DNA from: Lentzea aerocolonigenes
GTDB lineage: Bacteria; Actinomycetota; Actinomycetes; Mycobacteriales; Pseudonocardiaceae
NCBI RefSeq assembly: GCF_000955955.1
Contig: NZ_JYJG01000412.1
Span: forward strand, 1-22,189
DNA length: 22,189 nucleotides
Direction of reading: 5' to 3'
Positions 1-3,578 of the stretch are shown here, piece after piece. The translations under genes were made by a program, and so were the position numbers. The notes under the pieces were generated by a model. The model was given only the letters and a program-made list of their open reading frames with translations, was not told the DNA's origin and made no database searches. Position 1 is the stretch's first letter, and each line of letters opens with the position of its first letter.

Positions 1-1212
1 GGTGACGATCGGGTGTGACCCGGTCATCTCCGCGCGGATGCCCCTCACCCACGAGTTCGCCGCCCACTTGAAGACGATGCCGTGCATCTCGTCGGCGGGA
101 GCCATGTTGCCGTAGTTGTTGACGGCCTCGGCGGGGTTGAGGTTCGGCATCGCCTGCGTGAAGCCGAAGTTCTCGAACCCGACACCGCGGACCGGGTCCA
201 CCAGCGGCGACACCTTGGAGTCGTATGTCGCCCCGTCAATCGCCGGTGAACCGTCCGAGGTGGAGTTGACCGGGACGTCGAACTCCAGCGGTTTGTCGAG
301 CGTGACCGTCGTGCCGGAGACCGAGGCGACGGTGAAGATCTGCTGGCGCATGTGCATGTTCAGCAACGGCCACTCGGTGCCGGTCGCTTGCTGCTGCTCG
401 TAGAACTTGACCGAGTTGGCGGCTCGGACGTTCACGAACATGCCCGCCTTGATGGTGCTCGCGGACGCGACCTTGATGGTCTTGTCCCCGGTTTTCGCGG
501 CCGCGGCCACCTTCGCGCCGACCTTCCAGTGCACGTTGACCGTGCCCTCGAAGATGTCCTTGCGGTTGGCCGGCGCGGACTTGTAGTAGCTGGCATAGCT
601 CGAATGCACGCCGCGCGACTGGACCCGGAACAGGCCCCGGCCCGGCCACAGCCAGCCGCCCTTGCCCTGCCCGTAGGTCATCCCGTCCTCGTCCCAGTCC
701 GAGCCGTCGGGCGTGAGTGCGTCGTACCGGGTGTTGACGTCGGGCGTGTAGACGATCTTGGTTGCCGTTGCGCCCGCACCCCTGATGATCAGGTAGTCGG
801 CGTCCACGTGCAGCTCGTGCGACACCTTCAGCTCACCGGCCGGCAGTGTGATGAGGCTGAGCTTCGAATAGCTCGCGCTCGGGGAACACTGCGTCCGGAT
901 CGAGTCGATCGCTGCCTGCAGTCCGGCGGTGTCGTCGGCAGCGTCATTCGGGCGGACGTTGAACTGGGAACTGAGTTCGGCAGCTGTGACCTGACAACTC
1001 GCGCTCGGGTTGACGTCATTGTTTCCGGGCAGCACGCCATTGCCGCGATACCCCGCCTTCGACCAGTCGTACAGGCCGGAAATAGGGGAACGTCGATTGC
1101 CTGACGAGACATCCAGGCCGGTGAGTGCGGGTGCGGCCGTGGATGTCGTCACGGGTACGGCGAGCGAACCGATTAAGAGGAGACTTAGCAGGGGTATGGA
1201 GGTCGGCTTCAT
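1..1212 (-). CDS. Secreted right-handed beta-helix protein (pectate-lyase-3 / GH28-like), C-terminus off the window
   Basis: The frame is open from an ATG at 1212 to the window edge (404 codons, no stop seen), so the gene is partial at its 3' end. A GAGGG ribosome-binding site lies just upstream of the ATG. The first ~28 residues (MKPTSIPLLSLLLIGSLAVP, then VTTSTA-AP) form a Sec signal peptide with an AxA-like cleavage site, so the product should be exported. Near residue 80 the segment NDAADDTAGLQAAID is the typical N-terminal motif of pectate-lyase-3/GH55/GH28-type parallel beta-helix enzymes, where the first coil follows directly. Later stretches rich in Asn, Gly and Val with repeated short strands agree with a beta-helix. 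The catalytic residues would be in or beyond the visible part, so hydrolase, lyase or non-enzymatic wall protein cannot be separated. The shared beta-helix fold is well supported; the substrate is unknown. Confidence 0.72.
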   Translation of the reverse strand, partial: MKPTSIPLLSLLLIGSLAVPVTTSTAAPALTGLDVSSGNRRSPISGLYDWSKAGYRGNGVLPGNNDVNPSASCQVTAAELSSQFNVRPNDAADDTAGLQAAIDSIRTQCSPSASYSKLSLITLPAGELKVSHELHVDADYLIIRGAGATATKIVYTPDVNTRYDALTPDGSDWDEDGMTYGQGKGGWLWPGRGLFRVQSRGVHSSYASYYKSAPANRKDIFEGTVNVHWKVGAKVAAAAKTGDKTIKVASASTIKAGMFVNVRAANSVKFYEQQQATGTEWPLLNMHMRQQIFTVASVSGTTVTLDKPLEFDVPVNSTSDGSPAIDGATYDSKVSPLVDPVRGVGFENFGFTQAMPNLNPAEAVNNYGNMAPADEMHGIVFKWAANSWVRGIRAEMTGSHPIVT

Positions 1213-1246
1213 TGATAACCCTCGTTCAGCAGGGCGGGGCTATTTC

Positions 1247-1275: not shown

Positions 1276-1681
1276 ACATTCACATTCTTGAATAAAGTAA
1301 TCCTGACAAGGTTTTCAATAACGGTTTTCTGACTCGCCGGTCAGTTCTCCTGGCAGCTCACGGGTCTGAATCGTGTGAGCCGATTGGGCCGGTCGCGACC
1401 CGAGTGGGGGTGAGCGGGCCTCGCGTCCGGAGTACCGGGATTTTTTCCTGTGCGACGTGGAATCTTGCCCCTTCTGTCATCCGGATGGACGCACGGAACC
1501 CACAAAAGTGGGGGTACCGGTGAGGTAGCTCGGGTCAGCCCGCCCACTTCAGCGCGCCATTCCGCACACCCATTCGTGTCCGAACCAACCCTGAACGGCG
1601 GATCGCCGCTTGGGCCGACAGCTGCAAAGGTCGGTTGCTGTTCGGCAGCGAGCGTTCCAACGAACAGGAGCACGACAGGTC
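1276..1681. other. Intergenic region upstream of the 2-methylisoborneol operon
   Basis: About 400 bases separate the divergent beta-helix and methyltransferase genes. No coding frame here has convincing family similarity or codon bias. Visible small structures are an inverted repeat CTGAC-N6-GTCAG at 1329-1344 and a perfect 5-bp hairpin CCCAC-AAAA-GTGGG at 1499-1512 that runs into GGGTAC (1512-1517). These could be regulatory sites for the 2-methylisoborneol operon, but no recognised box was identified. No cyclic-nucleotide-binding regulator gene, often next to this operon in other actinomycetes, is present. Confidence 0.5.
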
Positions 1682-2524
1682 ATGGCGAGCCCCACTGTGA
1701 AGCCGGTTCTGCGCACCGACTACCAGCGTTCCGTCGCGGACTACTGGAACAAGGAGAAGGACCCGGTCAACATCAAGCTCGGTGAGGTCGACGGCCTCTA
1801 CCACCACCACTACGGGCTCGGTGCGTACGACCCTGCCGTGCTGGGGATGGGCGACGAGGCGATCATCGCCGAGATGCACAGGCTCGAGACCGCACAGGCC
1901 GAGGTGCTGCTGGACGCGTTCGGCGACGTGCCCGCCGGCGGCCACCTGATGGACGGCGGCTCCGGGCGCGGCGGCACGAGCTTCATGGCCAACGCCCGGT
2001 TCGGCGCCCGCATCGACGGCGTCAGCATCTCCGAGCAGCAGGTCGCGTTCGCCAACGACCAGGCTGTCGAACGCGGCGTCGCCGACCAGGTCCGGTTCCA
2101 CTTCAAGAACATGCTCGACACCGGCTTCGAGACCGGCTCGTTCAACGGCATCTGGACCAACGAGACCACGATGTACGTGGACCTCCAGCAGCTGTACGGC
2201 GAGTTCGCGCGGCTCATCGCGCCGGGCGGCCGGTACGTCTGCATCACCGGCTGCTACAACGACCTGACGGGTGGCCGTTCGCGTGCGGTCAGCCAGATCG
2301 ACCAGCACTACATCTGCAACATCCACCCGCGCAGCGAGTACTTCAGGGCGTTGGCGGACAACGGTTTCGTGCCGATCAGCGTCGTCGACCTGACGCCGGA
2401 GACCATCCCGTACTGGGAGCTGCGCGCCAAGTCGTCGGTCGCGACCGGTGTCGAGGACCCGTTCCTGACCGCGTACAAGGAAGGCAGCTTCCACTACCTG
2501 CTGATCGTGGCGGACCGCATCTGA
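1682..2524 (+). CDS. Geranyl diphosphate 2-C-methyltransferase
   Basis: This 280-aa SAM-dependent methyltransferase makes 2-methylgeranyl diphosphate from geranyl diphosphate, the first committed step to the earthy odorant 2-methylisoborneol. The sequence shows the family hallmarks: DYQRSVADYWNKE at 13-25, GLYHHHYG at 38-45, a SAM-binding glycine motif DGGSGRGG at 91-98, NMLDT near 143, NETTMYVDL at 160-168 and TIPYWELRA near 241-249. The ATG at 1682 is preferred because a CAGGAG stands about 12 bases upstream and the protein then begins as usual; an in-frame start at 1610 would add an unconserved tail. Its TGA overlaps the ATG of the next gene by one base (TGATG), implying translational coupling with the synthase. 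Length is slightly below the usual ~290 aa because the N-terminal tail is short. Family assignment is secure. Confidence 0.95.
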   Translation: MASPTVKPVLRTDYQRSVADYWNKEKDPVNIKLGEVDGLYHHHYGLGAYDPAVLGMGDEAIIAEMHRLETAQAEVLLDAFGDVPAGGHLMDGGSGRGGTSFMANARFGARIDGVSISEQQVAFANDQAVERGVADQVRFHFKNMLDTGFETGSFNGIWTNETTMYVDLQQLYGEFARLIAPGGRYVCITGCYNDLTGGRSRAVSQIDQHYICNIHPRSEYFRALADNGFVPISVVDLTPETIPYWELRAKSSVATGVEDPFLTAYKEGSFHYLLIVADRI

Positions 2525-3465
2525 TGAAGGACCTCCTCACCGGGCCGTCCGGGCTGGGCACCTCCGCTGCCCGGCTCGGGCGGCCCGAGGCCGTGGAACT
2601 GCCACCGGAACCCGGCTACGCGGAACGGCCGTGGGGCGACGGGACGGCGCCGCCGTTGTACGTGCCGGTGCTCGAACGCGAGGACGAGCTGCTGGCCGCC
2701 GCCGTCGACGAGCGGCTGATCGCGTGGGCGGGGGACTGCGGTTTCGAGGAGCCGGAACGGTTCCTGGGCGGCAAGTTCGGCCGTCTCGCGGTGCTGACCC
2801 ACGTGGACACCTCTGATGTCGAGCAGCTGCTGATCGCCGCGAAGCTCAACGCGGCGTGGTGGGCCGCCGACGACCTCTACGCGGACGACACCGAGATGGG
2901 CGCGATCCCGGCCGAGCTGTCGCCGCGGCTGGCGCTGGCGATGGCCGCGATGGACCCGGTGGCGCCCGCCGGCGAGTTCACCGTCGAGCTGGAGGAGCGG
3001 CTGGCGGCGGATCCGGTGCTCGTCGGACTGCGGTCCGGCATCGGGCACCTGGCGTCGCGCAGCACACCCACTGTGGTGCAACGGGTCTGCTACTCGACGT
3101 TCGCGATGTTCGTGTCCTGGGGTGCCTACGCGGCGTGGCGGCACACCGGCAACTACCCGCCCGCGTGGCAGTACCTCGCGACCCGGCAGCACGACACGTT
3201 CTACACGTCGATGACGCTGATCGACGCGGTCGGCGGCTACGAGCTGCCCGCGCCGTTGTACTACGACCCGCGGGTGCGGCAGCTGCTCACGGCCGCGGGC
3301 ACTGCGTCGGTGATCGTCAACGACCTGGTGTCGGTGGAGAAGGACGCCGCGGACGAGAAACCGGTCTGCAACATGGTGCTGCAGATCGCGGCCGACCGGG
3401 AGTGCTCGATCGCCGAGGCCACCGCGCGCACGGTCGAGCTGCACAACCAGCAGAGATGTGTATAA
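2524..3465 (+). CDS. 2-methylisoborneol synthase, 3' end broken by an adapter-like insertion
   Basis: This class I terpene cyclase converts 2-methylgeranyl diphosphate to 2-methylisoborneol in the cytosol. The aspartate-rich metal site is DDLYADD beginning at residues 116-117. The second metal motif, NDLVSVEKD at 266-274, fits the NSE triad with Asp274 in place of the usual Glu. The N-terminus lacks the long Pro-rich extension of many Streptomyces homologues, but PPLYVPV marks the normal domain start. The frame ends at TAA 3463-3465, inside a 19-bp Tn5 mosaic-end-like sequence. The lost C-terminus, ending in the conserved RY pair, continues at 3473-3578 in another frame. Roughly ten residues seem to be missing between the two parts, by comparison with family members. 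In the real genome the gene is most likely intact; as written here it would give a truncated protein. Confidence 0.9.
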   Translation: MKDLLTGPSGLGTSAARLGRPEAVELPPEPGYAERPWGDGTAPPLYVPVLEREDELLAAAVDERLIAWAGDCGFEEPERFLGGKFGRLAVLTHVDTSDVEQLLIAAKLNAAWWAADDLYADDTEMGAIPAELSPRLALAMAAMDPVAPAGEFTVELEERLAADPVLVGLRSGIGHLASRSTPTVVQRVCYSTFAMFVSWGAYAAWRHTGNYPPAWQYLATRQHDTFYTSMTLIDAVGGYELPAPLYYDPRVRQLLTAAGTASVIVNDLVSVEKDAADEKPVCNMVLQIAADRECSIAEATARTVELHNQQRCV

Positions 3466-3472
3466 CAGACAG
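3454..3472 (+). other. Tn5/Nextera mosaic-end sequence (probable library artefact)
   Basis: AGATGTGTATAACAGACAG matches the 19-bp Tn5 mosaic end used in tagmentation adapters at 18 of 19 positions; the one difference is C for G at 3466. It sits exactly where the synthase frame breaks. Flanking DNA on both sides is synthase coding sequence, and no transposase or IS50 sequence is near. Read in the downstream frame it gives EMCITDR, close to the EMCIRDR peptide that the unmutated mosaic end encodes. Confidence 0.9.
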
Positions 3473-3578
3473 GTTGCTGGCGGTGCCGTCGGTCGAGCTG
3501 CACCGGTTCCTGAAGGGCACCAAGGCCTGGATGGGCGGCGGTTTCGAATGGCACACCACCCACCCGCGTTACAAGTGA
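3473..3578 (+). pseudogene. C-terminal remnant of 2-methylisoborneol synthase
   Basis: Directly after the mosaic-end-like sequence, a frame different from that of the upstream synthase reads LLAVPSVELHRFLKGTKAW, then MGGGFEWHTTHPRYK and a TGA at 3576-3578. The GG-x-EWH and RY residues are those expected at the C-terminus of 2-methylisoborneol synthases; the RY pair senses the diphosphate in class I terpene cyclases. The piece has no start or ribosome-binding site of its own. It is therefore the displaced end of the gene that starts at 2524, not a separate gene. Confidence 0.88.

What the first reader, a model, noticed from the sequence alone, without database searches (positions are those of the whole stretch)
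3440..3578. Tn5/Nextera mosaic-end sequence splits the 2-methylisoborneol synthase gene
AGATGTGTATAACAGACAG (3454-3472) matches the tagmentation mosaic end at 18 of 19 bases and sits exactly where the frame breaks. The C-terminal exon-like remainder is intact but in another frame, and about ten conserved residues are gone. A natural Tn5 event would leave a transposase or a 9-bp target duplication; neither is seen. Anyone reading the frame literally would call a truncated enzyme or pseudogene, and would infer loss of 2-methylisoborneol production wrongly.
Basis: partly seen in the sequence, partly recalled or inferred. Interest (0 to 1): 0.72.

Follow-up and report, generated by a model that had tools for sequence, protein, structure and literature searches.

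The report
Sequencing-adapter scar in odour gene
A stretch of laboratory sequencing adapter was stitched into this draft genome in the middle of the gene for the musty-smelling compound 2-methylisoborneol, so the gene very probably only looks broken; it is an assembly error and not biology.

Summary
Window 3454-3472 matches the Tn5/Nextera mosaic end at 18 of 19 bases (0 of 100 shuffles); the frame stops inside it. In 23 of 23 other genomes of the genus the gene runs uninterrupted across this point, with 33 bases between fixed points against 23 here. The assembly shows the cause: 19 mosaic-end matches at up to 3 mismatches in 648 contigs, 14 exact, reversed control 0. Eight lie 0-2 bases from a contig end facing inward, and two more form a back-to-back pair ending a contig. 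The 23 relatives have none at up to 1 mismatch. At four other internal scars the flanks are neighbours in the relatives fetched; two were undecided, one not compared. None of 7 single internal copies has an adjacent 9-bp duplication or a second mosaic end in its 3-kb locus. The same one-base variant occurs in 25 stretches of other public genomes, 24 near a stretch end. This is a contig-join or gap-closing scar. The synthase is probably intact in the organism; no reads were available to prove it.

The parts
3454..3472 (+). Tn5/Nextera mosaic-end adapter remnant, 18 of 19 bases; its GACAG end abuts the downstream genomic flank
   Evidence: 18 further matches at up to 3 mismatches in the assembly
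3452..3453 (+). AG in front of the mosaic end; relatives mostly have CTG where the window has CAG at 3451-3453. Three of the 8 simple contig-end copies in this assembly also carry AG in front, so these two bases are probably part of the scar
   Evidence: the assignment is inference
2524..3451 (+). Genuine 5' part of the 2-methylisoborneol synthase gene (residues 1 to about 309); 89-94% identical in protein to 21 of 23 congeners, 71% to G019, partial match (83%) to G005
3473..3578 (+). Genuine 3' part of the same gene in another frame: 34 residues plus stop; 0 amino-acid changes against 9 of 23 congeners
3463..3465 (+). TAA stop supplied by the adapter letters; end of the apparent 313-aa product
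1610..2524 (+). ORF of the geranyl diphosphate 2-C-methyltransferase (partner enzyme), intact at its end, its stop overlapping the synthase start; true start probably further in than 1610

Best explanation
Library adapter left in the reads was assembled into the draft genome. Tagmentation joined the mosaic end to a genomic fragment whose first base is 3473. Reads that still carried the adapter tipped a contig end with it. When two contigs that are true neighbours were joined or gap-closed, the adapter tip was kept and about 31-32 genomic bases between the contigs were lost. The result is a net 10-base loss, a frameshift and an adapter-encoded stop in the 2-methylisoborneol synthase gene. Shown: the adapter letters, their other copies at contig ends, the collinear flanks, and the gene uninterrupted here in relatives. 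Inferred: the joining step, the untrimmed reads, and that the strain's real gene is intact.
For: 18 of 19 match, 0 of 100 shuffles. 19 matches at up to 3 mismatches in the own assembly, 14 exact, reversed control 0. Eight have only 0-2 bases between them and a contig end, with GACAG facing the genome; two more make a back-to-back pair that ends contig C635; another back-to-back pair is inside C561. 0 of the 23 other genus genomes have one at up to 1 mismatch. 23 of 23 congeners are uninterrupted here, with 33 bases between fixed points against 23 in the window. The flanks look like constrained coding sequence: e.g. 50 silent and 20 amino-acid codon changes on the left and 5 and 2 on the right against L005. 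Internal scars C541, C555, C622 and C411 have flanks that are neighbours in every relative stretch fetched for them (3, 2, 3 and 1), with net length changes of about -52, -78, +1 and -19. The C-variant recurs in 25 stretches of other public genomes, 24 within 120 bases of a stretch end, facing inward. The SKESA paper (one passage read) reports this 19-mer as the most frequent suspect k-mer in 204 of 224 trimmed read sets (5 of 5 and 199 of 219).
Against: One base differs from the adapter (G to C), so the copy is not exact. No raw reads or second assembly of this strain could be examined; the closest other protein in the 120 rows listed (of 744) is 94% identical. Two internal sites (C561, C577) could not be shown collinear and C482 was not compared with relatives. 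Assemblies bearing the mosaic end are a minority: 15 of 395 others drawn from the phylum at up to 1 mismatch.
Confidence: 0.97

Rival explanations
1. A natural or laboratory Tn5-type transposition (or a remnant left after excision) disrupted the gene in the living strain.
For: The mosaic end is by origin a Tn5 end (recalled), and the letters sit inside a gene. One other internal site, C482 (3 mismatches), does have an 18-base word of genome repeated on both sides of the adapter letters, though that is not the 9 bp of Tn5.
Against: No adjacent 9-bp duplication at any of 7 single internal sites and no second mosaic end within 1.5 kb on either side of them; ten of the 19 matches sit at contig ends, which transposition does not explain; bases are lost as well as gained here; no congener carries it at up to 1 mismatch.
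Confidence: 0.01
2. The adapter is an artefact, but the strain also has a genuine deletion or decayed synthase gene at this point.
For: About 31-32 bases of the relatives are absent, and nothing in the window can show what they were.
Against: Three of the four other scars resolved against relatives lose bases too (net about 19, 52 and 78; the fourth, C622, is +1 net), so the scar alone can explain the loss; in 22 of 23 comparisons the left part, and in all 23 the right part, align codon by codon, with silent changes outnumbering amino-acid changes except against the distant L023 (left part) and the altered L024 (left part).
Confidence: 0.02
3. Chance resemblance within a diverged gene segment.
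For: None of substance.
Against: 0 of 100 shuffles at up to 3 mismatches; reversed control 0 in 10.25 Mb; 18 further matches in the same assembly.
Confidence: 0.001

Closest known systems
Nextera/Tn5 tagmentation adapter carry-over in short-read assemblies
   Same: Same 19-mer, GACAG end against the genome, concentrated at contig ends; the same k-mer is reported as the commonest suspect adapter in SKESA's trimmed read sets (PMC6172800, one passage read)
   Different: Here one base is changed and the copy is internal, left behind at a join, so trimming of contig ends would not remove it
Nextera mate-pair junction adapter (recalled: two mosaic ends back to back, 38 bases)
   Same: C561 and C635 hold back-to-back mosaic ends of 36 and 37 bases
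   Different: Both are 1-2 bases short of the recalled 38, and stitching of two adapter-tipped contigs would look alike; the window copy is a single end
2-methylisoborneol synthase (NCBIfam NF041167, family 2 encapsulin cargo terpene cyclase; PDB 3v1v/3v1x)
   Same: The N-terminal piece and the out-of-frame C-terminal piece both match the model, at positions 35-322 and 333-366 of 366
   Different: Model positions 323-332, under the scar, are not matched; the first piece scores 372.8 against a cut-off of 400

Membership tests
Nextera adapter remnant (assembly artefact) | Mosaic-end 19-mer | tested here: met
   18 of 19 at 3454-3472; one base differs
Nextera adapter remnant (assembly artefact) | Other copies in the same assembly, at contig ends, GACAG end facing the genome | tested here: met
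   19 matches at up to 3 mismatches; 8 simple inward-facing ends plus a junction pair ending C635
Nextera adapter remnant (assembly artefact) | Absent from relatives' genomes, and their gene uninterrupted at this point | tested here: met
   0 of 23 others at up to 1 mismatch; 23 of 23 uninterrupted across the site
Nextera adapter remnant (assembly artefact) | Absent from the strain's genomic DNA by reads or PCR | not testable with these tools
   no reads held
Natural Tn5/IS50 insertion | 9-bp target duplication | tested here: not met
   none adjacent at 7 of 7 single internal sites. The 13-base word shared across the window scar is the VELH-coding repeat of the gene itself, also a near repeat in relatives; C482 has an 18-base repeat, not 9
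Natural Tn5/IS50 insertion | Two ends enclosing a transposase gene or cargo | tested here: not met
   one mosaic end only in the window at up to 3 mismatches; no separate transposase search was run
2-methylisoborneol synthase | Family-specific HMM score above the cut-off in one reading frame | tested here: not met
   372.8 bits against 400 for the interrupted frame as written; the C-terminal piece matches separately
2-methylisoborneol synthase | Partner geranyl diphosphate methyltransferase next to it | tested here: met
   NF041943, 493.7 bits against a cut-off of 400, ORF 1610-2524

The most novel reading that the evidence does not exclude
The strain's synthase gene carries a genuine lesion here (a deletion of about 32 bases) that also helped to cause the assembly break, so the strain really lacks 2-methylisoborneol; the adapter letters themselves are still foreign.
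Probability: 0.02. Interest if true: 0.2.

Novelty: not a real feature. Interest (0 to 1): 0.1.

Why it matters
Read literally, this genome would be scored as having lost 2-methylisoborneol production, and at least four other internal joins of the same assembly carry the same kind of scar. Internal adapter scars survive trimming of contig ends, so gene losses inferred from such drafts need checking. A search for the 19-mer with one mismatch allowed finds this one and most of the others (17 of the 19 matches).

Tried and rejected
Natural transposition: rejected for want of an adjacent 9-bp duplication and a second end and because of the contig-end copies. Chance: rejected. A second, intact synthase copy in the own genome: one match only. 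Chimeric join of distant regions in the window: rejected, since both flanks match the same gene in 23 of 23 congeners at a constant spacing of 33 bases. Mate-pair library as the source: left open; two back-to-back pairs suggest it. No paper naming this genome's library was found in one listing search (15 of 547 papers shown, none with the genus name), which guessed the genus Lentzea from the best protein hit. Plasmid records hold only distant relatives, 5 records below 60% identity. A search for the 19-mer with contamination and assembly listed 14 papers, of which one (SKESA) was opened at one passage. A search for adapter at contig ends in public assemblies listed 9 papers, none opened. The mate-pair junction adapter search listed one paper, not opened.

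Full report
What is in the sequence. The window holds AGATGTGTATAACAGACAG at 3454-3472 on the + strand, one base away from the Tn5/Nextera mosaic end; no other place in the window comes within 3 mismatches, and none of 100 dinucleotide shuffles do. The gene that starts at 2524 is read as 313 aa and stops at a TAA at 3463-3465, which lies inside the 19-mer. Its translation matches NCBIfam NF041167, the family 2 encapsulin cargo terpene cyclase, at model positions 35-322 of 366; an overlapping frame ending at 3578 matches positions 333-366. The ORF just upstream (1610-2524) is geranyl diphosphate 2-C-methyltransferase, above its curated cut-off. So this is the two-gene 2-methylisoborneol cassette (the pairing is established knowledge, recalled). 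PDB entries 3v1v and 3v1x, named 2-methylisoborneol synthase, match the closest intact relative P0001 over residues 3-351 of 354.

What relatives show. All 24 genomes of the genus searched, own included, match the synthase. In 23 of the 23 others the coding sequence runs uninterrupted across the site, reading LHNQ(L/V/M)VRDFE(A/E)GH and on to the end. The spacing between the last codon compared on the left (3448-3450) and the first on the right (3474-3476) is 33 bases in 23 of 23 relatives and 23 in the window. One row departs elsewhere: L024 (genome G005) matches only residues 204-309 and shows 207 codons with amino-acid changes in an ungapped comparison of the left part, so its own N-terminal part is altered or shifted; at this site it agrees with the rest. 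L023 (genome G019, 71% identical) is a distant copy with more amino-acid than silent changes on the left. A 39% identical second terpene synthase (L025) and five weaker matches (L026-L030) were left out of these counts. The 34 residues after the adapter have 0 amino-acid changes against 9 of 23 congeners, with 7 to 12 silent changes in those nine, as expected of a gene still under selection.

What the assembly shows. The own genome (10.25 Mb in 648 contigs) has 19 matches at up to 3 mismatches, 14 of them exact, and none for the reversed control pattern. Their surroundings fall into four kinds. Eight lie at a contig end with only 0, 1 or 2 bases outside (the contig end is read from where the fetched stretch stops short) and the GACAG end facing the genome. 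Two make a back-to-back pair that ends contig C635. Two make a back-to-back pair inside C561. Seven are single internal copies: C55 (this window), C411, C482, C541, C555, C577 and C622; that of C482 is the 3-mismatch match. Three of the eight simple end copies have AG in front of the mosaic end, as the window copy does (3452-3453). The other 23 genus genomes have none at up to 1 mismatch.

Other internal scars. Relatives' stretches were fetched for six of the seven other internal places and compared with 600 bases on each side. C541 (3 of 3 stretches), C555 (2 of 2), C622 (3 of 3) and C411 (1 of 1) have both flanks in the right order and strand. Comparing the bases between the matched flanks gives net changes of about -52, -78, +1 and -19. 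C577 and C561 gave no left-flank match and remain undecided; for C561, one search had placed both sides on one contig of G007, in order, with about 1.3 kb more between them. C482 was not compared with relatives, but an 18-base word of genome is repeated on both sides of its adapter letters, as when two overlapping contig ends are laid side by side. So the resolved internal copies look like joins of true neighbours, with the adapter tip kept and genome replaced.

The mismatch. The exact variant with C was scanned for in the genome-contig collection (one genome per species, GTDB 220; own records may be left out): 25 stretches hold it. In 24 of 25 it lies within 120 bases of an end of the fetched stretch and faces inward; the exception is L060. 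One search also counts one as outward; that is the 127-base stretch L056, whose two ends are both near. For 14 of these 24 the contig length shows that the stretch end is the contig end; for the other ten, which lie at the start of an 8000-base stretch, this is inferred. The variant is therefore a recurrent form of the adapter, most simply a read error, and not a sign of age.

Mechanism. Shown: adapter letters at a point where relatives have other bases, with the same letters at many contig ends. Inferred: untrimmed tagmentation reads tipped the contigs, and a scaffolding or gap-closing step fused the tips. The back-to-back pairs resemble the mate-pair junction adapter (its sequence is recalled, not from a call), which would fit a scaffolding library, but fused tips would look alike. 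A 13-base word, CGGTCGAGCTGCA, occurs on both sides of the window scar; it is the VELH-coding repeat of the gene itself and may have helped to break the assembly there. That is speculation.

Known and not new. The SKESA paper (PMC6172800; one passage read) names this 19-mer as the commonest suspect adapter k-mer: all 5 trimmed read sets in one collection and 199 of 219 in another. The finding is an artefact of a known kind. Its use is as a warning: the synthase should not be called lost, and other joins of this assembly need the same caution.

Noticed in passing
own genome contigs C411, C541, C555, C577, C622, C482, C561 (loci L046, L039, L040, L042, L043, L049, L041): Seven further internal mosaic-end places in the same assembly; four have collinear flanks in relatives with bases replaced, so more genes may be falsely broken.
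   Followed up: partly
L024 (genome G005, contig C3:286960-287277): The synthase of this congener matches only from residue 204 on; its N-terminal part is altered or shifted, with no mosaic end in that genome at up to 1 mismatch.
   Followed up: no
window 1-1239 (-): The gene upstream of the methyltransferase is an ORF on the other strand, open at the window's edge, starting with a signal-peptide-like stretch; its 404-aa form has no Pfam match. No encapsulin shell gene was recognised in this upstream stretch (Pfam was run on two of its ORFs only), although the synthase is filed as an encapsulin cargo.
   Followed up: no
L060 (Alcaligenaceae bacterium SAGV5 contig), 2653-2671: The C-variant of the mosaic end lies well inside a fetched stretch of a 2.4 Mb polished contig, unlike the other 24 stretches of that scan.
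   Followed up: no
phylum sample, e.g. genomes G219, G143, G133: 15 of 395 other assemblies drawn from the phylum carry the mosaic end at up to 1 mismatch; G219 has 20 matches, including an exactly abutting back-to-back pair inside contig C7.
   Followed up: no
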